A program made the position numbers and the translations under genes. The notes under the pieces are model-generated. The model saw only the letters and a list, made by a program, of their open reading frames with translations, had not been told where the DNA came from and searched no databases. DNA of 64,000 nucleotides. Origin: Actinophytocola xinjiangensis. Lineage in GTDB: Bacteria; Actinomycetota; Actinomycetes; Mycobacteriales; Pseudonocardiaceae. The DNA is taken from the NCBI RefSeq assembly GCF_001921215.1, contig NZ_MSIF01000005.1, forward strand, positions 186,001 to 250,000. The letters are read 5' to 3'. Position 1 is the first letter of the stretch. Each line of letters begins with the position of its first letter. Positions 15,077 through 29,722 of this stretch are shown one piece after another.

Positions 15077-16693
15077 TTACCGCAGCGCGAACGTGCCGGC
15101 GTCGGCCCAGTCGAGGGCGAAGGCCGGGACCAGGCCCAGCAGCAGCGTCACCACGACGCCCAGGGTGATCGCCGCGGTGGTGAACGCGCCGGGCACGGTC
15201 ACCGTCGGGCCGTCGGGGGCCGGCTCGCTGAAGTACATCAGCACGATCACCCGCAGGTAGAAGAACGCCGCCACCGCCGAGGCGATCAGCGCCACGACCA
15301 CCAGCGGGGCCATGCCGTCGGACAGCGCCGCCGAGAACACCACGAACTTGCCGATGAACCCGGACGTCAACGGTATGCCGGCCATCGCGAGCAGCAGGAA
15401 CGCGAACACCCCGGCCACCAGCGGCGAGCGTTTCGCCAGCCCCGCCCACTGCGACAGATGGGTCGCCTCGCCGTCGGCGTCGCGGACCAGCGAGACCACG
15501 CCGAACGCGGCGAGCGTGGTGAAGCCGTAGGTCAGCAGGTAGAACAGCGTCGAGGACAGGCCGTCCTCGTTGAGCACGATCGCGCCGACCATCATGAAGC
15601 CGGCGTGCGCGATCGACGAGTAGGCGATCATCCGCTTGATGTCGGTCTGGGTCAGGCCGAGCACCGCGCCGATGACCATCGACACGATCGCCACACCCCA
15701 CAGCACGCCGCGCCACTCCCACTGCGTCGACTCCAGGCCGACCTGGAGCACCCGCAGGATCGCGCCGAACGCGGCGACCTTCGTACAGGCCGCCATGAAC
15801 GCCGTGATCGGGGTCGGCGCGCCCTGGTAGACGTCCGGTGTCCAGGCGTGGAACGGGCCGACCGAGCCCTTGAACAGCAGGCCGACGATCAGCAGTGCCA
15901 TGCCGGCGAACAGCAGCGTGTCCGAGCGGTCCGAGCCGGCGGCGGCGTTGGCGATGTCGGCCAGGCGCACCGAGCCGGCGTAGCCGTAGAGCAGGGCCAG
16001 GCCGTAGAGGAAGAACGCCGAGGCGAACGCACCGAGCAGGAAGTACTTGACCGCCGCCTCCTGGGAGAGCAGCCGGCGCCGGCGGGCCAGGCCACACATC
16101 AGGTACAGCGGCAGGCTCAGCACCTCGAGCGCGACGAACATCGTCAGCAGGTCGTTGGCCGCGCAGAAGGTCATCATGCCGCCGAGCGCGAACAGCGTCA
16201 GCGGGAAGACCTCGGTCTGCATCTGGAAGCGGGCCGCGTCGCGGCGGTGCGGCTGGGCGCCGAGCCGCTGCTCGCGGTCCTGCTTGGTGCCGGGGCGCAC
16301 GGCGGCCTGGGCGACCAGCGCGCCGCCCGGCTCGACCGAACGGTCGGCGATCATCAGCACCGCGCCCAGCGCGAGCGCCAGCAGCGTGCCCCACAGGAAC
16401 AGCGCCGGCCGGTCGATGGCCAGCGAGTCGGACAGGGTCAGCTCACCCTCGGCCGGCGCGTCGGACAGGTACAGCGCCATCGCCGCACCGGCGCCGACCA
16501 CGGCCAGCAGCGTGAGGAACACCTGGGCGCTCCACCGCTGGTGCCGGGGCAGGAACGCCTCCAGCAGCACGCCGATGCAGGCCGCGCCGATGATGATCAG
16601 CAGCGGCATGATCGCGCCGTAGTTGATCGGCGCCAGCGTCTCCTTGTCGGGCGGGTCCTGCGCGAGCAGGAGGACCGACGTCAGTGCGGACAA
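15077..16693 (-). CDS. nuoN: NADH-quinone oxidoreductase subunit N
   Basis: A 538-residue antiporter-like membrane subunit of complex I with about 14 transmembrane helices. The Mrp-type proton-translocating core includes EVFPLTLFALGGMMTF, ALEVLSLPLYLMCGLAR (conserved Glu in TM5), LLFKGSVGPFHAWTPDVYQGAPTP (conserved Lys in TM7) and TQTDIKRMIAYSSIAHAGFM. The start is TTG at 16693, one base after the nuoM stop. A GGAGG 8 bases upstream supports it, and no other start gives the right N-terminus. It is the last gene of the operon. Confidence 0.96.
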   Translation of the reverse strand: MSALTSVLLLAQDPPDKETLAPINYGAIMPLLIIIGAACIGVLLEAFLPRHQRWSAQVFLTLLAVVGAGAAMALYLSDAPAEGELTLSDSLAIDRPALFLWGTLLALALGAVLMIADRSVEPGGALVAQAAVRPGTKQDREQRLGAQPHRRDAARFQMQTEVFPLTLFALGGMMTFCAANDLLTMFVALEVLSLPLYLMCGLARRRRLLSQEAAVKYFLLGAFASAFFLYGLALLYGYAGSVRLADIANAAAGSDRSDTLLFAGMALLIVGLLFKGSVGPFHAWTPDVYQGAPTPITAFMAACTKVAAFGAILRVLQVGLESTQWEWRGVLWGVAIVSMVIGAVLGLTQTDIKRMIAYSSIAHAGFMMVGAIVLNEDGLSSTLFYLLTYGFTTLAAFGVVSLVRDADGEATHLSQWAGLAKRSPLVAGVFAFLLLAMAGIPLTSGFIGKFVVFSAALSDGMAPLVVVALIASAVAAFFYLRVIVLMYFSEPAPDGPTVTVPGAFTTAAITLGVVVTLLLGLVPAFALDWADAGTFALR

Positions 16694-16694
16694 C

Positions 16695-18269
16695 TCAGTT
16701 GCCTCCGTCCGAGATACCGACCGACTGGAGTGTTGCGTCGACCGACGGGGTGACCACGTCGATCACCGGCGCCGGGTAGAACCCGAGCCCGATGACCAGG
16801 ACCACCAGCGGGGCCAACACCAACTTCTCCCTGCCGTTCAGGTCGAAGATCGCCTTGCGCGCGCCGACCTCCGGGGCGAGCGCGGTACCCGGCCCGCCGG
16901 CCACGTTGACCAGCGCGCTGCCACGCACCGGGCCGTGGAAGATCCGCTGGTAGAGCCACAGCACGTAGAGCGCGGCGAGGACCATGCCGATCGTGGCCAG
17001 GATCGTGTACACCGGCTCCGGGCCGTAGGCGCCGATCAGCACCAGGAACTCGCTGATGAACGAGTTGGTGCCGGGGAGCGACAGCGTGGACAGCCCGGCG
17101 AGCAGGAACACGCCGGCCAGCGCCGGGGTGATCTTGGCCAGGCCGCCGTAGTCCGAGATCAGCGAGGAGCCGCCGCGGGCGATGACCATGCCGATCACCA
17201 GGATCAGCATGCCGGTCGAGATCGAGTGGTTGACCATGTAGGTCACCGCGCCGACCTCGGCCTGGGCGGTGAACGCGAACACGCCGATCGCGATGAAGCC
17301 GAAGTGCGCGATCGAGACGTAGGCGATGAACCGCTTCATGTCCCGCTGCATGGTCGCCAGCAGCGCGCCGTAGAGCACGCCCGCGACACCCATCACCAGC
17401 ACCAGCGGCGCCAGCTCGACGGCCGCGTCGGGGGTCATCGGCAGCAGGTAGCGCAGGAAACCGAACGTGCCGACCTTGTCCAGGATGCCGACCAGCAGCA
17501 CCGCGACACCGATCGGCGCCTCGGCGGCGGCGTCGGGCAGCCACGTGTGCAGCGGCACCAGCGGCGCCTTCACCGCAAACGCGAGGAAGAAGCCGAGGAA
17601 GATCCAGATCTGGTTGGACAGCGGCGCGTTCGACACGACCTCGACCAGCGTCGCCCAGTCGAAGGTGCCCTTGCCCAGCTCGTCGGAGGCCAGCGAGTAC
17701 GCGCCGATCGCGGAGGCCAGCATGATCAGGCCGCCGAGGAACGAGTACAGGAAGAACTTGACCGCCGCGTACTGCCGCCGGGCCCCGCCGTAGTTCCCGA
17801 TCAGGAAGTACATCGGGATCAGCATGATCTCGAACAGCACGTAGAACAGGAACACGTCGGTCGCGGCGAACACGCCGATGGTGATCGCCTGCTGGAGCAG
17901 GATCAGCGACAGGAACCCGCCGGCGGTGCGCTGCGCCGGCAGCTTCTCCGCCCAGCCGAAGCCGATCACCAGCGGCACCAGCAGCGCGGTGACCGCCACC
18001 ATCACCAGCGCGATGCCGTCCACGCCGAAGGCGATGTGCACGCCGAAGGCCGGGATCCAGTCCAGCGAGAAGTGCTGCTGGAACCGCTCGGCCGACGGGT
18101 CGTAGTCGATCCACGCCACGACCGCGACCGCCAGCTCGACCAGCGCGAAACCCAACGCCGTCTGCTTGGCGAGCTTGTCGTTGTCACGCAGCAGCGCCAC
18201 CACGATGGCGCCGGCCAGCGGGATCAGCAGAAGCGCGACGAGCAGCGCCGCGCCGGAACTCGAGGTCAT
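16695..18269 (-). CDS. nuoM: NADH-quinone oxidoreductase subunit M
   Basis: A 524-residue antiporter-like membrane subunit of complex I with about 14 helices. Family signatures include FEIMLIPMYFLIGNYGGARRQYAAVKFFLYSF, the TM7 stretch FAVKAPLVPLHTWLPDAAAEAP, and QRDMKRFIAYVSIAHFGF. It pumps protons in the distal part of the membrane arm together with NuoL and NuoN. The start ATG overlaps the nuoL stop by one base (TGATG). Length is normal. Confidence 0.97.
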   Translation of the reverse strand: MTSSSGAALLVALLLIPLAGAIVVALLRDNDKLAKQTALGFALVELAVAVVAWIDYDPSAERFQQHFSLDWIPAFGVHIAFGVDGIALVMVAVTALLVPLVIGFGWAEKLPAQRTAGGFLSLILLQQAITIGVFAATDVFLFYVLFEIMLIPMYFLIGNYGGARRQYAAVKFFLYSFLGGLIMLASAIGAYSLASDELGKGTFDWATLVEVVSNAPLSNQIWIFLGFFLAFAVKAPLVPLHTWLPDAAAEAPIGVAVLLVGILDKVGTFGFLRYLLPMTPDAAVELAPLVLVMGVAGVLYGALLATMQRDMKRFIAYVSIAHFGFIAIGVFAFTAQAEVGAVTYMVNHSISTGMLILVIGMVIARGGSSLISDYGGLAKITPALAGVFLLAGLSTLSLPGTNSFISEFLVLIGAYGPEPVYTILATIGMVLAALYVLWLYQRIFHGPVRGSALVNVAGGPGTALAPEVGARKAIFDLNGREKLVLAPLVVLVIGLGFYPAPVIDVVTPSVDATLQSVGISDGGN

Positions 18270-20239
18270 CAGGCGTACCTCACTGCAAGGAATGCGACCA
18301 GGATCAGGACCGTGCCGCCGAGGATGGAGGCCGCGTAGGAGCGGACGAAGCCGGTCTGCATCCGGCGCAGCCTCCCGGAGCTGCCGCCGAGCGCGGCGGC
18401 GATGCCGTTCACCAGCCCGTCAACTCCCTTGTTGTCCACGTAGACCAGCGCCCGCGCGAGCCAGGTGCCCGGCTTGGCGACCAGGGCCTCGTTGAGGGCG
18501 TTGCCGTACAGGTCCTTCCTGGCCGCGCGGACCGGGAAGGACACCGGGTCGGGCTTGACCACCGGCACGTCGCGCCGGCCGACGACCAGCCAGGCGATCA
18601 GCACGCCCAGCAGCGACAGCGCCACCGTCAACCACGGCACCAGCGAGTGCGGGATGACCGTGTGCTCGGCCTCGGCGAGCGTGCCCAGCGAGGGCGAGAG
18701 CCATTCGGCGAGGGTGTCGCCGCTGGCGAAGAACCAGCCGGCGGCCACCGAACCGATCGCCAGGACGACCATCGGCGCGGTCATCACCACCGGCGACTCG
18801 TGCGGGTGGAAGTCCCGGCCGTCCTCGCTCTTGAGCTCCTTCCAGCGCTGCTTGCCGAAGAAGGTCATCAGCATCAGCCTGGTCATGTAGAACGCGGTCA
18901 GCCCAGCCGCGATCAGTGCCGCGCCGCCGAAGACCCAGCCGCGCCAGCCCTCCTCGCCGAAGGCCGCCTCGATGATCGCGTCCTTGGAGAAGAAGCCGGA
19001 GAACGGCGGGATGCCGATCAGCGCCAGGTAGCCCAGGCCGAAGGTGGCGAACGTGACCGGCATGATCTTGGCCAGTCCGCCGTACTTGCGCATGTCGACC
19101 TCGTCGTTCATGGCGTGCATGACCGACCCGGCGCCGAGGAACAACCCGGCCTTGAAGAAGCCGTGGGTGAGCAGGTGCATGATGCCCAGCGCGAACCCGA
19201 ACGGTCCGAGACCCACGGCCAGCATCATGTAGCCGATCTGGCTGACCGTGGAGTACGCGAGCACTTTCTTGATGTCGTCGTAGGCGCAGCCGATGATCGC
19301 CCCGATGAGCAGCGTCAGCGCGCCGATGATGACCACGACCAGCCGGCCGTCCTCGCTGGCCATGTAGATCGGGTTGGACCGGGCGACCAGGTACACGCCG
19401 GCGGTGACCATCGTCGCCGCGTGGATCAGGGCCGAGACCGGGGTCGGGCCCTCCATTGCGTCGGGCAACCACGCCTGGAGCGGGAACTGGCCGGACTTGC
19501 CGCACGCGCCGAGCAGCAGCAACAGCGTCAGCGCGGTGATCGTGGCGCCGGAGAGCTGGTCGATGCCGGCGAAGACCTCGGTGTACTGGGTCGTGCCCAG
19601 CTCGGCGAACATGATGAAGATCGCCAGTGCCAGGCCGACGTCGCCGACCCGGTTCATCAGGAAGGCCTTCTTGGCCGCGGTCGCCGCCGACGGGCGGTTG
19701 GTGTACCACCCGATCAGCAGGTACGAGGCGAGACCGACGCCCTCCCAGCCCAGGTACAGGGTCACGAACCCGTTGCCCAGCACCAGGATCAGCATCGCGG
19801 CGACGAACAGGTTGAAGTACCCGAAGAAGCGCCGGCGGTCGGGGTCGTCGGCCATGTAGCCGATCGAGTAGATGTGGATCAGCGCGCCGACACCGGTGAT
19901 CAGCAGCACGAAGCTGATCGACAGCGGGTCGATCCGCAGCCCGAACTCGACCTGGAGCTGCTCGACCGGGATCCAGTCGAACAGCGACACGTTCTGTACG
20001 CGCTCGCCCTCGGCCATGCCGGTGGAGGAGAAGAACAGCATCAGGCCGTAGACGAACGACGCCACCACGGTCAGGGTGCCGAGCAGGTGCCCCCACGCGT
20101 TGGTGGCCTTCCCGCCGAGCAGCAGCACGGCGGCGCCGGCCAGCGGGAACAGGACCAGCAGCCAGGCCGAACCGGCGAGGCCACCGGACACCTCGGTTAC
20201 CTCGGCGACCTGCTGCGCCGCCAAGTGAGTAGCAGTCAC
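18269..20239 (-). CDS. nuoL: NADH-quinone oxidoreductase subunit L
   Basis: A 656-residue membrane subunit, the most distal antiporter-like module of complex I, with about 16 helices and a lateral helix near the C-terminus. Signatures are IYSIGYMADDPDRRRFFGYFNLFV, the conserved GWEGVGLASYLLIGWYTNRPSA, CGKSGQFPLQAWLPDAMEGPTPVSALIHAATMV and DDIKKVLAYSTVSQIGYMML. The start is GTG, 10 bases after the nuoK stop. Length is typical of actinobacterial NuoL. Confidence 0.97.
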   Translation of the reverse strand: MTATHLAAQQVAEVTEVSGGLAGSAWLLVLFPLAGAAVLLLGGKATNAWGHLLGTLTVVASFVYGLMLFFSSTGMAEGERVQNVSLFDWIPVEQLQVEFGLRIDPLSISFVLLITGVGALIHIYSIGYMADDPDRRRFFGYFNLFVAAMLILVLGNGFVTLYLGWEGVGLASYLLIGWYTNRPSAATAAKKAFLMNRVGDVGLALAIFIMFAELGTTQYTEVFAGIDQLSGATITALTLLLLLGACGKSGQFPLQAWLPDAMEGPTPVSALIHAATMVTAGVYLVARSNPIYMASEDGRLVVVIIGALTLLIGAIIGCAYDDIKKVLAYSTVSQIGYMMLAVGLGPFGFALGIMHLLTHGFFKAGLFLGAGSVMHAMNDEVDMRKYGGLAKIMPVTFATFGLGYLALIGIPPFSGFFSKDAIIEAAFGEEGWRGWVFGGAALIAAGLTAFYMTRLMLMTFFGKQRWKELKSEDGRDFHPHESPVVMTAPMVVLAIGSVAAGWFFASGDTLAEWLSPSLGTLAEAEHTVIPHSLVPWLTVALSLLGVLIAWLVVGRRDVPVVKPDPVSFPVRAARKDLYGNALNEALVAKPGTWLARALVYVDNKGVDGLVNGIAAALGGSSGRLRRMQTGFVRSYAASILGGTVLILVAFLAVRYA

Positions 20240-20249
20240 GGCCTTCCCC

Positions 20250-20549
20250 TCAGTACTTCAGCAGGTTGGAGTCGTCGACCGAGGCCGAACGGCGGGTACG
20301 GAAGATCGCCATGATGATCGCGAGGCCGACGACGACCTCCGCCGCGGCGACGACCATCACGAAGAACGCCATGATCTGCCCGTCGAGCGAGCCGTTGATC
20401 CGCGCGAACGTGACCAGCGTCAGGTTCACCGCGTTGAGCATCAGCTCGATGCACATGAACACCACGATGGCGTTGCGCCGCACCAGAACCCCGACCGCGC
20501 CGATCGTGAACAGCAGCGCGGACAGGAGTAGGTAGACGGTCGGCGTCAT
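20250..20549 (-). CDS. nuoK: NADH-quinone oxidoreductase subunit K
   Basis: A 99-residue subunit with three transmembrane helices. [38 protein letters not shown] (with the buried Glu of the proton channel) and [19 protein letters not shown] (second conserved Glu) are all present. It overlaps nuoJ by four bases. Confidence 0.97.
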
Positions 20550-21394
20550 GACTGGTCCCCTTCGCTGGCGGAGGGATTGAGCGCGCGGGAGTCGGCGCCC
20601 GGCGTGGTGCCGGCGACGGCCCTGCGCTCCTCCTCGAACTCGTCGACGGCGGCCGAGTCGATGAGCCGCGAGAGCGACTCGGGCGCGACCGAGCCGTCGG
20701 GCAGCAGGGCCGGGGTGGCCACCGAGCTGGCGGTGGCGAACACACCGGGGCCGGGCAGCGGCGAGGGCCGGGCGTACTCGCCGCGGAAGCGGGCCTCGAC
20801 CATCTCGCGCTGGGTCTTGCGGCCCCTGGTCTGCCGGTCGACGTAGCCGAGCAGCATCGCGCCGACGGCGGCGGTGATCAGCAGTGCGGAGGTCAGCTCG
20901 AAGGCGAACAGCCAGTCGGTGAAGATCGACCGGCCGATGTTCTCCACGTTGCCAGGGCCGCCGTTGGCGTCGCTGCCCTGCAGGCCGACCGGGGTGACGT
21001 CGGACAGCGAGCGGTAGAGCGCGCCGACGAACAGGACGGCCAGGCCGATCCCGAGGATCGTGGCGGCCAGCCGCTGGCCGCGCAGCACCTCGACGACCGA
21101 GTCGGAGGAGTCACGACCGACGAGCATCAGCACGAACAGGAACAGCATCATGATCGCGCCGGTGTAGACGATGATCTGCACGAAGCCGAGGAACGGCGCC
21201 TGCTGGACCATGTACGTCACGCCGAGGCTGAGCATCGTCAGCACCAGGAACAGTGCCGAGTGCACGGCGTTCTTGGCGAAGATCATGCCCAGGGCGCCGA
21301 GCAGCGCGAGCGGGCCGAGGACCCAGAACGAGATGGCCTCGCCGGTGGACATGGTGTTCTCCACGCCCTGCGCGAGTACCAGTGCGCTGTTCAC
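20546..21394 (-). CDS. nuoJ: NADH-quinone oxidoreductase subunit J
   Basis: A 282-residue subunit with five transmembrane helices in the first 190 residues, including [20 protein letters not shown] and [22 protein letters not shown] soluble tail of about 90 residues (from about 190: [20 protein letters not shown]) follows, which is common in actinobacteria and absent in E. coli. I chose GTG at 21394, inside the nuoI stop (GTGA), with GGGGGAGG 4 bases upstream; the ATG-like longer frame lacks a site. Confidence 0.95.
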
Positions 21395-21939
21395 TTGACC
21401 TCCCCCTTGACCGGGTCGGGGTAGCCCCACTTCCTGGCCAGGCGCGGCGCGTCGACGTAGTAGTCCTGCTCGTCGTCACCCAGGCGCATGGGGTGCGGCG
21501 GCTGCTCCATGCCCTTGAGCAGCGGGGCGAGCAGGTCCTCCTTGGTCCAGATCAGGTCCTGCCGGTTGTCGTTGGCGATCTCGTACTCGTGGATCATCGT
21601 CAACGAGCGGGTCGGGCAGGCCTCGATGCACAGGCCGCAGCCGATGCAGCGCAGGTAGTTGATCTGGTAGTCCGCGCCGTAGCGCTCACCCGGGGAGTAG
21701 CGGGCCTCCTCGGTGTTGTCGCCGCCCTCCACGAAGATCGCGTCCGCCGGGCAGGCCCACGCGCACAGTTCGCAGCCGACGCACTTCTCCAGCCCGTCCG
21801 GGTGCCGGTTGAGCTGGTGGCGGCCGTGGTACCTGGGCGCGGCCGGCGCCCCGGCCTCCGGGTACTCCTCGGTGACGACCTTGCGGAACATCGTCGAGAA
21901 GGTGAGCCCGAAGCCCTTGAACGGATCAAACATCCCCAT
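21391..21939 (-). CDS. nuoI: NADH-quinone oxidoreductase subunit I
   Basis: A 182-residue peripheral-arm ferredoxin subunit (TYKY). It carries two [4Fe-4S] motifs, [12 protein letters not shown] and [12 protein letters not shown], that hold clusters N6a and N6b and pass electrons on to NuoB. The N-terminal [20 protein letters not shown] amphipathic helix docks it to the membrane arm. The C-terminal 40 residues are an actinobacterial extension. It starts inside the end of nuoH (14-base overlap). Confidence 0.97.
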
Positions 21940-23251
21940 CGGTGGACTCCTTCTCGGAGTTGGGTTCCTCGGCGCCCGCGCCGACCCTGGCCGGCCGGCG
22001 GCGGGAGCCCCGGGCGCGCACCGCCTTGCGCTTGGGCGCGGACGGTACTTCCAGGTCCAGCGGTGGGACCGGGTAGCCGCTGCCGGTGAGCGTCACCTGG
22101 TCGGGCTCCTCGACGCTGCGGCCCCGGTCGAACACGAAGCTGATGCCGATGAGCACGAGGATGACGATGCCGCCGTAGGTGAGGATCTGGCCGGTGCTGA
22201 CCTCGGAGTCGGTGCGGATCGCGCGCAGTCCGGCGATCAGCACGATCCACACCAGGTTCAGCGGGACCAGGACCTTCCAGCCGATCCGCATGAACTGGTC
22301 GTAGCGGAACCGGGGCAGCGTGGAGCGCAGCCAGATGAAGCAGAACAGCACCGCGAAGGTCTTGGCGAAGAACCAGAGGACCGGCCACCAGCCGCTGTTG
22401 AAGTAGTTGTCCCCGATCAGCGAGATCGGCCACGGGGCCATGTAGCCGCCGAGGAACAGCGTGGTGGCGAACATGGAGACGATGACCATGTTCACGTACT
22501 CGGCGAGGAAGAACAGCGCGAACTTCATCGAGCTGTACTCGGTGTGGAACCCGCCGACCAGCTCGGACTCGGCCTCGGGAAGGTCGAACGGCGCCCGGTT
22601 GGTCTCACCGACCATGGACACCATGTAGATCAGGAAGCTGAACGGCAACAGGTAGAAGAACCATCCTGTTTCCTGGGCCGCCACGATGTCCCCGGTGGAC
22701 AGCGACTGCGCGTAGAGCACGACGCCGACGATCGACAGACCCATCGCGATCTCGTAGGAGATCATCTGCGCGGCCGAGCGCAGACCGCCCAGCAGCGGGT
22801 AGGGCGAGCCGGAGGACCAGCCGGCGAGCACGATGCCGTAGATCCCGAAGCCGGCGCCGGCCAGCACCAGCAGCACGCCGACCGGCAGGTCGACCAGTTG
22901 CAGGACCGTGCGCTCACCGAAGATCGACACCTCGGGCCCGAAGGGCATCACCGAGAACGACAGCATCGCCGGGATCACCACGATGACCGGGGCCAGGAAG
23001 TACACCTTCCGGTCCGCGCCCTCCGGGATGATCTGCTCCTTGAACGGGAGCTTGATCGCGTCGGCGACGGACTGGAGGTAGCCGCCGGGGCCGACCCGGT
23101 TGGGGCCGGGCCGCTGCTGGAAGCGGCCGATCAGCTTGCGCTCCCAGACGATCATGAACACGGTCAGGATGGGCCCCATCAGGAGCAGCACCACGACCTT
23201 GATCAGGATCAGCCAGAGCGGGTCATCCGCCAGGAGCTCGGCCCGCGTCAT
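21926..23251 (-). CDS. nuoH: NADH-quinone oxidoreductase subunit H
   Basis: A 441-residue membrane subunit that joins the peripheral and membrane arms and forms part of the quinone chamber. About eight transmembrane helices are present. Conserved segments include [94 protein letters not shown] and [16 protein letters not shown] charged C-terminal tail of about 60 residues ([17 protein letters not shown]) extends beyond the usual end, as in other actinobacteria. The quinone site it shares would normally be completed by NuoB and NuoD, and nuoD is not in this operon. Confidence 0.97.
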
Positions 23252-25731
23252 TGTTGCGCCTCCCCGGAATCGCCCGGCTCGACGGTGACCACGGACCCGT
23301 GGCCGGCGCCGAGTGTGGCGCTCACCGTCGACTCGCCGGAGTTGGCGGGCAGCCAGACGACGCCGTCCGGCAGGTCCGCGTGCTCGACCGGCAGGGTGAT
23401 CGCACCGCGCTCGGTCCTGACCGTGACGAGCCCGTTGAGTCCGGCGCTGGCCGCCGTCGAGGCCGACAGGCGGGCCACGACCGCGCGAGCGGTGCCGGCC
23501 AGGTTCGGCTCGTCGGCCTGCAACGTGCCGTTGTCCAGCAGCTGGTGCCAGGTCGCGAGCAGTGCCTGGCCGTCCTCGGGCGTGGTCGCCGGCGGCACCG
23601 GGACGTCCGGCGCCAGCGAGGCCGGCCTGGTCACCGGCAGCCGGGCCAGGTCACCGGCGGCGGCGGCCGGGGTCTGGGTGAACAGGTCGACGTCCATCTC
23701 GACGCCGAGGGTGTCCAGCACCCGGCAGTCCGACAGCGACCCCGGGCTCTCGATGGTCTCGCCGAACTCGCGGCGGCGACCCTCCCAGTTGAGGAAGCTG
23801 CCGGCCTTCTCGACGACCGGGGCCACCGGGAGCACCACGTCGGCGCGCTCGGTCACCAGGCTCGTCCGCTGCTCCAGGCTGACCACGAACCCGGCCTGCT
23901 CGATCGCCTTGACGGCCAGGTCCGGGTCGGGCAGGTCGCCCGGGTCCACCCCACCGACCAGCAGGCCGGAAAGCCCACCGGCGGCGGCCGCGGCGACGAT
24001 CCCGGCGGTGTCCCGGCCGGTGGCCGCCGGCAGCGCGCCGGCCTCCAGCCCCCAGGTGCGCTCCACCTCGGCGCGGGCGTTGGCGTCGACGACCATCCGG
24101 CCGCCGGGCAGCAACGTCGGCACCGCGCCGGCCTCCAGCGCGCCGCGCTCACCGGCCCGGCGCGGGATCCAGGCGATCCGCGCCCCGGTGGTCTCGGCGA
24201 GCTTGGTCAGCGCGGTGAACAGGCCGGGGATCCCGGCGGCGCGCTCGCCGACCAGGATCACCGCGCCCGGGTTGCCCAGGGCGGTGGTGACGTCGGGCGC
24301 GTGGCCGGCCAGGCCGTCCACCGCCGCCGCCTCCGCACCGGGCGGGCAGGCCAGCAGCGTGCCCACGGCCGGCTTGTCCACGCCGTTGGGCCGGATCGTC
24401 TTGTGCACCGCGGGTGTCGTCCACTGTCCGATGTGGAACACCTGGGTCCTGCCCCGGCGGGCCGCCTTGCGCAGCCGCAGGAACACGATCGGCGACTCCT
24501 CCTCGGGGTCGAGGGCGACGCAGAGCACCGCCGGCGCCGACTCGATCGCCCGGAACGTCACCCCCGTCTCCGGGGTGGTGCCCACGACCGAGGTGGTGAG
24601 GAAGTCCAGCTCCTCGGCAGAGTGCGGCCGGGCCCGGAAGTCGATGTCGTTGGTGCGCAACGCGAGCCGGGCGAACTTGGCGTAGGCGTAGGCGTCCTCG
24701 ACGGTCAGCCGGCCGCCGGTCAGCACGCCGACGCCCTTGCTGTCGCGGGCCTTCGCCAGGCCCTCGGCGGCCACGCGCAGCGCGTTGGTCCACGACGTCT
24801 CGACCAGCTCACCGGTGTCGGTGTCCCGGACCAGCGGGCGGGTGATCCGCTCGCCGGAGGTCACGTACCGGAAGGCGAACCGGCCCTTGTCGCAGATCCA
24901 CTCCTCGTTGACCTCGGGGTCCTCGGCGGCGAGCTTGCGCATCACCTTGCCGCGCCGCCAGTCGGTGCGCTCCGCGCAGCCCGACGAGCAGTGCTCGCAC
25001 ACCCCCGGGGTGGACACCAGGTCGAACGGGCGCGACCGGAACCGGTAGGCGGCGCTGGTCAGCGCGCCGACCGGGCAGATCTGGATGGTGTTGCCGGAGA
25101 AGTAGCTCTGGAACGGCGAGTCCTGCGCGATGCCGATCTGCTGCTGCGCGCCGCGCTCCAGCAGGTCGATGAACGGGTCACCGGCGATCTGGTCGGAGAA
25201 GCGGGTGCAGCGCTGGCAGAGCACGCACCGCTCGCGGTCCAGCAGCACCTGCGTGGACACCGGGATCGGCTTGGGGAAGGTCCGCTTGGCCTCGACGAAC
25301 CGGGAGTCGGTCCGGCCGTGGGCCATCGCCTGGTTCTGCAGCGGGCACTCGCCGCCCTTGTCGCAGACCGGGCAGTCCAGCGGGTGGTTGATGAGCAGCA
25401 GCTCCATCACACCCTGCTGGGCCTTGTCGGCCACCGGCGAGGTCCGCTGGGTCTTCACCACCATGCCGTCGGCGACGGTCATCGTGCAGGAGGCCTGCGG
25501 CTTGGGCATCGGCCGGCCACCCATCTCGACCTCGACCAGGCACTGGCGGCAGGCGCCGGCCGGGTCGAGCAGCGGGTGGTCGCAGAACCGGGGGATGACC
25601 GTGCCGAGCCGCTCCGCGGTGCGGATCAGCAGCTCGCCCTTGGGGGCGATGACCTCGACCCCGTCGATGGTCAGCCGGACGTGCCCCTCGGGTACGGGGG
25701 CCGCCTCCGGCTTTTCTTCGATCGCTGTCAT
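23248..25731 (-). CDS. nuoG: NADH-quinone oxidoreductase subunit G
   Basis: An 827-residue peripheral-arm iron-sulfur subunit. A [2Fe-2S] domain comes first ([20 protein letters not shown]), followed by the HxxxC and CxxC cluster region ([19 protein letters not shown]) and a further set ([24 protein letters not shown]). A molybdopterin-oxidoreductase-like domain begins with [19 protein letters not shown]; that domain is catalytically dead in complex I. The ATG at 25731 overlaps the nuoF stop (ATGA); the longer open frame runs through nuoF and is a shadow. Electrons pass from NuoF/E through it to NuoI. Confidence 0.96.
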
Positions 25732-27050
25732 GCGTGCGCTCCCGCAAGTGCTGGCTTCGCCGCGCCGTCGCGACCGGCGTTGCGGTCGCACAGGGCGAGG
25801 AACTCGTCCCGGAAGTACTGGATGCCGCTGACGATCGGGCTCACCGCGCCGTCGCCCAGCGCGCAGAACGCCCGGCCGAGGACGTTGTCGCAGATGTCGA
25901 GCAGCGTGTCGATGTCGGACTCGGTGCCGTGCCCGTCGACCATCCGCTCCAGGATTCCCGCGAGCCAGTAGGTGCCCTCCCGGCAGGGAGTGCACTTGCC
26001 GCAGGACTCGTGCTCGTAGAACTGGGTCCACTTCATCACGGCCCACGGGACCGACACGGTCTCGTTGAACACCATGACCGCCGTCGTGCCCAGCATCGAG
26101 CCGGCCTCGGCGGCGCCCTCGAAGTCCAGCGGGACGTCCAGGTGCTCGGCGGTGAACAGCGGCGTCGACGAGCCGCCCGGCGTCCAGAACTTCAGCGGGA
26201 CGCCGTCCTTCATGCCACCGGCCAGCTCCAGCAGCTCGCGCAGCGTGGTGCCCAGCGGCGCCTCGTACTGGCCTGGCTTCTCGACGTGGCCGGAGATCGA
26301 GTAGATCTTCGGGCCGGGCGAGCGCTCGGAACCCATGGCGCGGAACCAGTCCGACCCGCCGTTGACGATGAACGGCACGCTGGCGATGGTCTCGACGTTG
26401 TTCACCGTGGTCGGCGCGGCGTAGAGACCGGCGGCGGCCGGGAACGGCGGCTTGAGCCGCGGCTGGCCGCGACGGCCCTCCAGCGAGTCGAGCAGCGCGG
26501 TCTCCTCGCCGCAGATGTAGGCGCCGGCGCCGGCGTGCACCGTGATCTCCAGGTCGAACCCGGAGTCGAGGATGTTCTCGCCGAGGTAGCCGGCCTCGCG
26601 GGCCTCACGCACGGCGGCGTTGAGCCGGCGGATGCAGTGCAGCGCCTCGCCGCGCACGTAGATGAAGCACCGGTGCGCGCGCATCGCGTAGGCGGCGATC
26701 ACGCAGCCCTCGATCAGCGAGTGCGGGTCGGCCATCATCAGCGGGATGTCCTTGCAGGTCCCCGGCTCGCCCTCGTCGGCGTTGATCACCAGGTAGTGCG
26801 GCTTGTCCTCGTTGGGCGGCATGAACGACCACTTCACGCCGGCCGGGAAGCCCGCGCCGCCGCGCCCGCGCAGGCCGGCGTCCTTGACCAGCGCGACGAG
26901 CTGCTCGGGGGTCCCGGTCAGTGCCCTGCGCAGCGCGGTGTAGCCCTCGAGCTGCTCGTAGGTCGCCAGGCGCCAGGAGTTCGGCGAGAGCCAGCGCTTG
27001 GTCAGCACCGGGGTCACCGGGTCGGTCGGCTGTGGTTCGGTCGTGGTCAC
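25728..27050 (-). CDS. nuoF: NADH-quinone oxidoreductase subunit F
   Basis: A 440-residue NADH- and FMN-binding subunit where electrons enter complex [16 protein letters not shown] is the NADH-binding glycine-rich loop, [12 protein letters not shown] the FMN-binding motif, [22 protein letters not shown] a second flavin/NADH segment, and [12 protein letters not shown] near residue 350 holds the N3 [4Fe-4S] cluster. The start is GTG within the nuoE stop (GTGA). Confidence 0.97.
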
Positions 27051-27790
27051 TTCTTCTCGACCTCCGGAAGCGCCGGCGGGGTCTCCGGCATCGTCGGGGC
27101 GGTCCAGCCGTTGTCGGCCGCCAGCTGGGCGCCGCGCAGGGTCTCCACCGCCGCCGACGGGCCGTCCACGCCGGCGCGGTAGGTGGCCTCGTCCTCGGGG
27201 AAGAACCCGGCCAGCTCCAGCTCGACGTCACGCAGGCTGGTCAGCGGGGCGCCCCGGGTGGGGGCCGGCTTCTCGCCCCGGCGCAGCGCGTCCACCAGCT
27301 CCACCGCCGACTCGGGCGTCTGGTTGTCGTAGTACTCGTAGTTGACCTGGAGCACCGGGCCGAGGTCGCAGGCGGCGAGGCACTCGGCGTGCTCCAGGGT
27401 GATCGAGCCCTGCTCGCCGGGGGTGCCGGCGGTGTCCTCGTGCTTGAGCGGCGCGCCCTCCTCGCCGAGGTGCTCGGCGAGCCGGCGGTAGATCGCGTCG
27501 CCGCCGAGGACCGCGCACAGGGTGTTGGTGCACACGCTGACCAGGTGCTCGCCGCAGGGCTTGCGCTTGTACATCGTGTAGAACGTCACGACCGCGCTGA
27601 CCTCGGCGTTGGACAGGCTCAGCTGCTCGGCGCAGAACTGGACGCCGGCCTGGCTGACGTGCCCCTCGACCGACTGCACGAGGTGCAGCATCGGCAGCAG
27701 CGCCGAGCGGGACTCGGGGTAGCGGCCGATGAGCTCGCCCGCCTTGGCCACGATGTCCGGCCCGAACACCGACACGTCCGGGGTGGTCAT
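27047..27790 (-). CDS. nuoE: NADH-quinone oxidoreductase subunit E
   Basis: A 247-residue thioredoxin-fold [2Fe-2S] subunit that partners NuoF. The helical N-terminal part (IGRYPESRSALLPMLHLVQSVEGHVS) is followed by the cluster motif CTNTLCAVLGG and CLAACDLGP. The last 70 residues are a poorly conserved Pro/Glu-rich tail. Its ATG overlaps the nuoC stop in one ATGA. In other actinobacteria nuoD lies exactly between these two genes. Here there is no room for it, although both nuoC and nuoE look complete. Confidence 0.95.
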   Translation of the reverse strand: MTTPDVSVFGPDIVAKAGELIGRYPESRSALLPMLHLVQSVEGHVSQAGVQFCAEQLSLSNAEVSAVVTFYTMYKRKPCGEHLVSVCTNTLCAVLGGDAIYRRLAEHLGEEGAPLKHEDTAGTPGEQGSITLEHAECLAACDLGPVLQVNYEYYDNQTPESAVELVDALRRGEKPAPTRGAPLTSLRDVELELAGFFPEDEATYRAGVDGPSAAVETLRGAQLAADNGWTAPTMPETPPALPEVEKK

Positions 27791-28659
27791 GAGTACGCCC
27801 TCCGCTGGTCTGGTGGCGGAATCTCCGCGCCCTTGTACTCCACCGGGATGCCGCCCAGCGGGTAGTCCTTGCGCTGCGGGAAGCCGTCCCAGTCGTCGGG
27901 CATGAGGATCCTGGTGAGCGCCGGGTGGCCGTCGTAGATGATGCCGAACATGTCCCAGGCCTCACGCTCCTGCCAGTCGGCGGTCGGGTAGACCGCGACG
28001 ACCGACGGGCAGTGCGGGTGGCCACCGTCCTGAGCGGACCAGTCGCAGGCGACCTCGAGGCGGATGCGCCGGCGGTAGGTCATCGACGTCAGGTGGTAGA
28101 CGGAGTGGATCCGCTGGGCGACGTCCTCGCCGTAGTCCACTCCGGACACCGACGTGCACATCTCGAAGCGCAGCGCCGGGTCGTCGCGCAGCAGTTGGCA
28201 CAGCGCCACGAGGTGTTCCGGGCGGACGTAGTAGGTGATCTCGCCCCGGTCCACGGTGACCTGCTGGATCGCCTCGGGTGAGACGCCCTGCTCGCGCATG
28301 GAGGCGAGCACCTGGTCGGTGAACTCGTCGAACCAGCCGCCGTAGGGCCGTTCGGCGGGCGGGGCGACGTGCGCGGCCAGGCGCAGGCCGCCGAAGCCGG
28401 AGGTGTCACCGGAGCCGGAGACACCGAACATGCCCCGGCGCTGCTTGCCGGCGACCACCGGCTCGGTGGGCCGCTCCGGCTGCCGCGCGGCCTCGGGCTC
28501 GGTGCCCGGGCGCTGCTCGACCTCGCCCGGCCGTTCCGCGCTGGAGCCTTCGCCGCCCGGCTCCGGCACGGTGATCGGCTCCGTGGGGGTCGGCTCGGTG
28601 GGGGTCGGCTCGGTGGGGGTCGGCTCGCTGGGCTTGTTCTCGTCAGCCATGTCGGTCAC
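27787..28659 (-). CDS. nuoC: NADH-quinone oxidoreductase subunit C
   Basis: A 290-residue peripheral-arm subunit. The C-terminal 190 residues are the conserved 30-kDa domain ([75 protein letters not shown]). The N-terminal 90 residues are Pro/Thr/Glu-rich and contain a tandem peptide repeat encoded by a 15-bp DNA repeat. It is not a NuoCD fusion: it ends at the normal NuoC position ([10 protein letters not shown]). The ATG overlaps the nuoB stop by four bases. Confidence 0.95.
28578..28622. repeat. 15-bp tandem repeat inside nuoC
   Basis: A GGGGGTCGGCTCGGT unit is present about three times head to tail, the last copy with one change. It encodes a Thr-Pro-Thr-Glu-Pro peptide repeat near the NuoC N-terminus. 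Such units vary in number by replication slippage without breaking the frame. Boundaries are given to within a few bases. Confidence 0.75.
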
Positions 28660-29204
28660 TTCTTCGCGAACTTGATGGAGGACGCGATCATCTCGGTGCG
28701 GTCACCGCGCTCGGCCCGCAGCGCGGCGCGCCGGGCGTTGATCGGCTCGTCGGAGATCTTCGCGTGCAGCTTGAGGATGGCGTCGAGCAGCATCTCCGGG
28801 CGGGGCGGGCAGCCGGGCAGGTACATGTCGACCGGCACGACGTGGTCGACGCCCTGGACCACCGCGTAGTTGTTGAACATGCCGCCGGAGGAGGCGCACA
28901 CGCCCATGGCGAGCACCCACTTGGGCTCGGCCATCTGGTCGTAGATCTGGCGCAGGACCGGGGCCATCTTGTTGGTCACCCGGCCGGCGACGATCATCAG
29001 GTCGGCCTGCCGGGGGGTCGCGGAGAACCGTTCCATGCCGAACCGCGCGAGGTCGTAGCGCGGACCACCGGTGGTCATCATCTCGATCGCGCAACAGGCC
29101 AGACCGAAGGTCGCCGGCCACAGTGAGTTCTTCCGGCCCCAGTTCACCAGCTTCTCCAAGCTGGCCAACAGGATTCCGTTGGGGAGCTTCTCCTCAAGTC
29201 CCAT
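28656..29204 (-). CDS. nuoB: NADH-quinone oxidoreductase subunit B
   Basis: A 182-residue subunit that carries the terminal [4Fe-4S] cluster N2, the direct electron donor to quinone. [13 protein letters not shown] (Cys 37 and 38), [14 protein letters not shown] and [15 protein letters not shown] supply the four cluster cysteines. It normally contacts NuoD across the quinone pocket. It starts 16 bases after the nuoA stop. Confidence 0.97.
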
Positions 29205-29220: not shown

Positions 29221-29643
29221 TCAGTTCCAGTCGAGGCCGCCGCGCCGCCAGACGTAGGCGTACGCGAAGCCGAGGGTCGAGATGAACAGGACGATCTCGA
29301 TCAGCCCGAAGAAGCCGAGCGCGTCGGCGGAGACCGCGAACGGGTAGAGGAAGACCATCTCGATGTCGAACAGGATGAACAGCATCGCGGTCAGGTAGTA
29401 GGCCACCGGGATGCGCCCACCGCCGGCCACCGGTTGCGGTGACGGTTCGATGCCGCACTCGTAGGCCTGGAACTTCGCGCGGTTGTAGCGCCGCGGCCCG
29501 ACCAGGGGGCCGAGCAACGCGGAGAACAGCGCGAATCCGGCCGCGAGAACGAAGAGCAGCAACAGGGGGAGGTAACTCCCCAGTCCCGATGAGACGTTGT
29601 CGCCCTGTGCTACGGATGTGCCGACAGCTGCGAGTACTGACAC
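29221..29643 (-). CDS. nuoA: NADH-quinone oxidoreductase subunit A
   Basis: A 140-residue three-helix membrane subunit and the first gene of the operon. [44 protein letters not shown] (conserved acidic residues) and [28 protein letters not shown] match the family. The loop [15 protein letters not shown] bears the conserved Cys switch region. I chose GTG at 29643 because AAAGGA lies 8 bases upstream; the open frame extends further but crosses the promoter region. Confidence 0.94.
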
Positions 29644-29706
29644 CTTCGCCGTCCTTTCCCGCTCCTCAGTCGGGCACCCTATGGGGTGGTCATCCCGTGG
29701 CCGCTG

Positions 29707-29722
29707 GTTAGGCACACCTAAC
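29707..29722. promoter_or_regulatory. iron-box-like palindrome upstream of nuoA
   Basis: GTTAGGCACACCTAAC is a 6-bp inverted repeat around a 4-base spacer, about 65 bases before the nuoA start. By my count the 19-mer ending in its CCTAA matches 14 of 19 positions of the DtxR/IdeR consensus TTAGGTTAGGCTAACCTAA. This makes iron-responsive control of the iron-rich complex I possible but not established. Confidence 0.35.

What the first reader, a model, noticed from the sequence alone, without database searches (positions are those of the whole stretch)
27787..27790. Complex I operon without nuoD
The nuo operon reads A-B-C-E-F-G-H-I-J-K-L-M-N. The stop of nuoC and the start of nuoE share one ATGA, leaving no room for nuoD, which encodes a roughly 430-residue subunit that forms most of the quinone pocket. 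nuoC is not a NuoCD fusion, and no NuoD-like protein is encoded elsewhere in the window. If nuoD had been flanked by ATGA overlaps on both sides, as most junctions in this operon are, recombination between the two 4-base repeats would remove it exactly and leave this junction. Either nuoD lives elsewhere, a second complex I supplies it, the complex is defective, or the assembly dropped a segment.
Basis: partly seen in the sequence, partly recalled or inferred. Interest (0 to 1): 0.8.

Follow-up and report, generated by a model that had tools for sequence, protein, structure and literature searches.

The report
Complex I gene nuoD moved elsewhere
This actinobacterium's respiratory complex I operon really has lost its nuoD gene, but an intact, unusually divergent nuoD sits alone about 100,000 bases away on the same chromosome piece, so the enzyme is probably complete and the case is a relocated or replaced gene rather than a missing subunit.

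Summary
In detail: in the window the complex I operon runs nuoA-B-C-E-F-G-H-I-J-K-L-M-N with nuoC and nuoE sharing ATGA. But NuoD is not missing. The same contig carries one intact nuoD ~100.5 kb away (G000:C45:315173-316516, minus strand), a lone gene between a cytochrome P450 and a divergent protein-kinase gene. The genome is an Actinophytocola (Pseudonocardiaceae). All 5 congeners held have nuoD between nuoC and nuoE, and nuoA-F stand together in 84 of 85 loci (the other is cut by its contig end). The loss is therefore a derived, in-frame deletion: nuoD's probable old start codon, overlapping nuoC's stop, now opens nuoE 48-55 codons inside the reading frame that all 5 congeners use, so nuoE's N-terminal extension went too. 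The ectopic NuoD keeps the quinone-site His and Tyr, but is only 76-78% identical to congeners (86-92% among themselves), and its synonymous divergence is at the between-genus level. A nuoD from another Pseudonocardiaceae genus that replaced the native one is favoured; a moved native copy that evolved fast is not excluded (AU p = 0.31). Mildly unusual genome biology, largely explained.

The parts
29221..29715 (-). nuoA (start codon uncertain)
   Evidence: NF005922 176.5 bits, cut-off 155
28656..29204 (-). nuoB
   Evidence: NF005012 255.4 bits, cut-off 116; 93-96% identical to congeners
27787..28659 (-). nuoC, unfused
   Evidence: NF005856 372.9 bits, cut-off 224
27787..27790 (-). nuoC stop / nuoE start overlap (ATGA): deletion scar where nuoD stands in relatives
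   Evidence: sequence; comparison with 5 congeners
27047..27790 (-). nuoE, lacking the 48-55-codon N-terminal part of congeners
   Evidence: NF005721 317.1 bits, cut-off 308
25728..27050 (-). nuoF
   Evidence: TIGR01959 622.3 bits, cut-off 558.65
23248..25743 (-). nuoG (start chosen by me)
   Evidence: NF005895 1306 bits, cut-off 802
21926..23251 (-). nuoH
   Evidence: NF004743 619 bits, cut-off 494
21391..21939 (-). nuoI
   Evidence: NF004537 295.5 bits, cut-off 163
20546..21430 (-). nuoJ (start uncertain)
   Evidence: NF005165 374.4 bits, cut-off 192
20250..20549 (-). nuoK
   Evidence: 97.2% identical on average to nuoK of 5 congeners, between nuoJ and nuoL
18269..20239 (-). nuoL (start uncertain)
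   Evidence: NF005141 784 bits, cut-off 556
16695..18269 (-). nuoM
   Evidence: NF004500 598.9 bits, cut-off 550
15077..16693 (-). nuoN
   Evidence: NF004441 768.5 bits, cut-off 477

Best explanation
An Actinophytocola lineage carries its only nuoD as a lone gene about 100 kb from the rest of the complex I operon. Shown: the operon lacks nuoD, the ectopic gene is intact and single in this assembly, and relatives keep nuoD in place. Inferred: an ectopic nuoD, most likely acquired from another genus of the Pseudonocardiaceae, made the native copy redundant; the native copy was then lost by an in-frame deletion that joined nuoD's old start codon to an internal codon of nuoE. Inferred too: the ectopic gene is transcribed on its own (TACCAT 6 nt before the ATG suggests a leaderless message; a stable stem-loop follows the stop), and its product assembles with the operon's 13 subunits into an ordinary NADH:quinone oxidoreductase.
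For: One full NuoD at C45 (366 bits PF00346; NF004739 559 bits vs cut-off 360, TIGR01962 550 vs 459). nuoC and nuoD neighbours in 5 of 5 congeners. nuoA-F together in 84 of 85 loci (80 named plus 5 congeners, 2 of them the same genomes; L118 starts at a contig end). Junction comparison. G000 NuoD vs congeners 75.7-77.9%, congener-congener 86.0-92.1%. nuoD mean dS: G000-congener 0.379, congener-congener 0.291, congener-other genera 0.368; for nuoB, E and F G000-congener dS is at or below about the within-genus level (15 other-genus loci picked by me). NuoB-C-E-F tree puts G000 in Actinophytocola (SH-aLRT 100), the quick NuoD tree outside it. Both His of HPS-HG and the Tyr of RMDY kept. Stem-loop -28.2 kcal/mol, z -4.5.
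Against: The AU test does not reject NuoD of G000 grouping with its genus (delta lnL 9.04, p 0.311), so outside origin is not proven; the NuoD branch is long (0.41), which makes its place unsure. No donor: in 390 family genomes only 3 besides itself pass E 1e-238, at 78-79%; the highest identity in the capped list was 80%. GC3 of the ectopic gene (0.975) lies in the range of the operon (0.86-0.99) and of congener nuoD (0.956-0.977), so composition shows no transfer. nuoC dS is also raised (0.397 vs 0.350). The scan found no sigma-70-like promoter and no U-tailed terminator. No transposase or integrase in 25 neighbouring frames scanned. No genome with a native plus a lone extra nuoD was seen. 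No expression or activity data.
Confidence: 0.6

Rival explanations
1. The ectopic nuoD is the native gene, copied or moved within the genome, that then evolved unusually fast; the operon copy was deleted.
For: AU test does not exclude it (p 0.311). Some acceleration is real on any reading: end branch 0.41 against a median of 0.054; 15 departures at 217 near-invariant columns, against 0-1 in the 5 congeners and at most 5 in 74 other family rows when each is left out in turn. GC3 is native-like.
Against: Synonymous divergence is raised as well, to the between-genus level, which faster protein change alone does not explain. It shares 0 of 2 residues diagnostic for the 5 congeners (very few positions). 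It is no closer to congeners than to other genera. No nuoC or nuoE remnant seen in its flanks.
Confidence: 0.3
2. Complex I is defective in this organism and the ectopic nuoD is a leftover.
For: Loss of operon co-expression; 15 departures at near-invariant columns, as many as rows from outside the family show (5-14); dN/dS against congeners 0.40-0.45, above the 0.18-0.32 among congeners.
Against: Open frame without a stop, well above both NuoD cut-offs; key residues kept; dN/dS still under 0.5; the other subunits are intact, and 10 of the 13 computed show a divergence ratio of 0.88-1.28.
Confidence: 0.06
3. Assembly artefact: a segment was misplaced or dropped.
For: Draft genome of 72 contigs; no reads available to me.
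Against: The junction is in frame with a new neat start and lies inside a 442-kb contig; the ectopic gene differs by over 20% from every congener copy and has its own flanks. A misplaced segment would look like the genus copy.
Confidence: 0.02

Closest known systems
Canonical 14-gene nuo operon (nuoA-N) of Pseudonocardiaceae such as Actinophytocola oryzae and A. algeriensis
   Same: Same subunits, same order for the 13 genes present, several overlapping start/stop codons
   Different: nuoD gone from the operon; nuoE shortened at its N terminus; nuoD alone 100 kb away
Bacterial NuoD with solved structure (8e9g_D, NADH-quinone oxidoreductase subunit D, best match at 615 bits)
   Same: Homology over residues 86-488, HPS-HG and RMDY motifs, C-terminal end DPVMGGVDR
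   Different: Longest end branch among the family rows; substitutions such as GPQHPSTHG to GPIHPSSHG
Xenologous gene displacement / mosaic operons (concept recalled, 41 papers hold both search terms, 8 were listed, none was read)
   Same: One subunit of a conserved operon replaced by a gene of different descent
   Different: Here the replacement is not in situ but at a distant place, with loss of the resident gene; the different descent is not proven

Membership tests
NuoD (complex I 49-kDa subunit) | Passes curated NuoD equivalog models over full length | tested here: met
   NF004739 559 bits (cut-off 360), TIGR01962 550 bits (cut-off 459), residues 87-488
NuoD (complex I 49-kDa subunit) | Quinone-ligating His and Tyr (Thermus Nqo4 His38, Tyr87; role recalled) | tested here: met
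   HPSSHG and RMDY aligned to chain 2fug_4
NuoD (complex I 49-kDa subunit) | Assembles in complex I with its partner subunits | not testable with these tools
   needs biochemistry
Canonical nuo operon | nuoD between nuoC and nuoE | tested here: not met
   Shared ATGA at 27787-27790; relatives have nuoD there
Xenologous replacement | Gene tree places it outside the host genus with significance | tested here: inconclusive
   Outside in the free tree, AU p 0.311; dS at between-genus level

The most novel reading that the evidence does not exclude
A core subunit of a 14-part respiratory enzyme was replaced by a foreign or fast-evolving ectopic copy under its own, possibly leaderless, promoter, so that the NuoD level became an independent control on complex I assembly, and the altered NuoD changed the quinone pocket.
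Probability: 0.1. Interest if true: 0.5.

Novelty: new variant of a known kind. Interest (0 to 1): 0.3.

Why it matters
It is a clean natural case of one core subunit leaving a conserved operon in a single lineage, with the deletion scar still readable. It can test whether a normally co-expressed complex tolerates an uncoupled and divergent core subunit, and it warns that a 'missing' subunit in an operon should be sought in the whole genome before a complex is called defective.

Tried and rejected
Second complex I as supplier: the only other PF00346 hit (C23, 71 bits) is in a 1050-codon frame that also matches NuoC weakly, so I take it for a hydrogenase-type fused C/D subunit (not profiled further).

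Ectopic copy derived from a second nuo operon: two family genomes (G048, G080) have a second NuoD at 64-66% and two NuoC, but the G000 NuoD is nearer to the main family copies, so it is not of that type. G104's second hit is a fragment of 200 residues (82% to the C-terminal part) that ends at the edge of a 3,350-base contig, so it is no evidence for a lone extra nuoD.

Empty-site test at the destination: the best congener match of the neighbouring P450 is 64% in G005 (36-39% for the other listed matches). Of 22 proteins of the G000 region sent against that stretch of G005, nuoD and P450 included, only the P450 hit, so no empty site could be compared. Kinase flank: many paralogs, uninformative.

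Divergence ratio: nuoK 2.79 (99 aa, few changes), nuoD 1.98, nuoA 1.69 (start uncertain), the other 10 computed 0.88-1.28; nuoN not computed, only 1 usable congener row. So nuoD is not the highest ratio. My first count of near-invariant columns left only G000 out of the definition, which favours the other rows; one search repeats it leaving out each row in turn.

A GACC x GACC repeat for the deletion was my first reading; one search shows that only 1 of 5 congeners (L155) has GACC there, so I no longer name the repeat.

Papers: searches were seen as listings only; two searches returned none. No paper was read.

Full report
On the minus strand the window carries nuoA-B-C-E-F-G-H-I-J-K-L-M-N. 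nuoC (27787-28659) and nuoE (27047-27790) share ATGA at 27787-27790. NuoC is not fused to NuoD. The window is G000:C45:186001-250000 of a 9.5-Mb, 72-contig genome, 99.26% complete.

nuoD is elsewhere. A search of the whole genome with PF00346 gave two places. One, C45:315176-316036 (the part that the profile covers), is a full NuoD above both curated cut-offs, with an ATG at C45:316516 (my reading). It lies about 100.5 kb from nuoC on the same contig and strand. The other, C23:541056-541493 (71 bits), lies in a 1050-codon frame that also matches NuoC weakly; I take it for a formate-hydrogenlyase-type large subunit. So this assembly has one true nuoD, a lone gene between a P450 and a divergent protein-kinase gene. 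Further out lie ordinary chromosomal genes (for example moeA, a mogA-like gene, a nucleotidyl transferase); no transposase or integrase was among 25 frames scanned.

The host.

The arrangement is derived. nuoC and nuoD are neighbours in 5 of 5 congeners. Of 85 loci (80 named, 5 congener; two genomes are in both sets), 84 have nuoA-F in a row, and in the other the contig begins just before nuoD. nuoC and nuoE both lie in the fetched stretch (about 1.5 kb each side) around nuoD in 26 of 26 loci of the family search and 28 of 28 of the class search; at least 10 of the 26 are genomes of the named set. These loci were chosen by NuoD score, not by neighbours, and they are the best-scoring ones only. 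In the 390 family genomes held, 3 besides G000 pass E 1e-238, at 78-79%.

The scar. In three congeners (L155, L156, L158) nuoC's stop overlaps nuoD's start as ATGA or GTGA; in two there is a spacer. In 5 of 5 congeners nuoE's frame is open for 48-55 codons upstream of the point where the window's nuoE begins, from a likely start codon and with a shared sequence (YGGS..GxGETH). The window reads TACTC ATG ACC ACC CCG GAC: a start codon in the place of nuoD's, joined in frame to the nuoE codons after that extension. One deletion of nuoD plus the extension gives this. An exact removal of nuoD alone would need an ancestor without the extension; since G000 groups inside the genus, that costs an extra step but is not excluded. 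The repeat used cannot be told: at the join the congeners read GAGACCACC, GAGTCCACC, GAGGCCACC, GGGACGCCC and GCCATGCCG.

Origin of the ectopic gene. NuoB, E and F of G000 are about as close to congeners as congeners are to each other; NuoC is somewhat less so (78.1 vs 82.9%), NuoD far less (77.2 vs 88.5%). Its closest matches are in other genera (80% at most). The quick NuoD tree puts it outside the genus on a branch of 0.41 (median end branch 0.054), but a tree that holds it with the genus is not rejected (p-AU 0.311). Mean synonymous divergence to congeners (0.379) is at the level between genera (0.368) and above that within the genus (0.291), while nuoB, E and F show no such rise and nuoC a smaller one. 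Outside the family identities fall to 60-70% in the matches listed, so the source is within or near the Pseudonocardiaceae. I favour transfer from another genus of the family, about 2:1 over a moved native copy that evolved fast. Composition is uninformative.

Is it functional? The frame is intact, dN/dS to congeners is 0.40-0.45 (0.18-0.32 among congeners), and the residues that ligate quinone in Thermus (roles recalled) are kept. Yet it departs at 15 of 217 near-invariant columns, where, each row left out in turn, congeners depart at 0 or 1, the 74 other family rows at 5 or fewer, and the 6 rows from outside the family at 5-14. Three of the 15 are in the N-terminal stretch near residue 32, two of these being gaps. 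I read this as relaxed or shifted constraint, not decay.

Expression, inferred. TACCAT six bases before the ATG would fit an actinobacterial -10 box and a leaderless message (my reading of the sequence printed; box type recalled); the sigma-70 scan found nothing. A stem-loop of -28.2 kcal/mol (z -4.5) follows the stop. I saw no remnant of nuoC or nuoE in the flanks: one search gave only short matches of E 7e-5 or weaker, and the best lies outside the nuo genes.

The finding is a relocated and probably replaced subunit gene: real, explained in outline, and of modest interest.

Noticed in passing
L003:14755-16238 (G000:C45:316754-318237): The protein-kinase gene divergent from the ectopic nuoD seems frame-shifted in a run of C near L003:15280: a pseudogene or a sequencing error.
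   Followed up: partly
G000:C23 about 541-543 kb (L004): Second PF00346 hit in a frame that also matches NuoC weakly: looks like a formate-hydrogenlyase/Hyc-type membrane complex.
   Followed up: partly
L154-L158, nuoE: NuoE of 5 Actinophytocola congeners has an N-terminal extension of 48-55 codons with a shared YGGS..GETH sequence, absent from the window's NuoE and variable in the family loci looked at.
   Followed up: partly
G048 and G080 (family genomes, group g44): Two NuoD and two NuoC per genome, the second NuoD at 64-66% to the query: probably a second complex I operon.
   Followed up: partly
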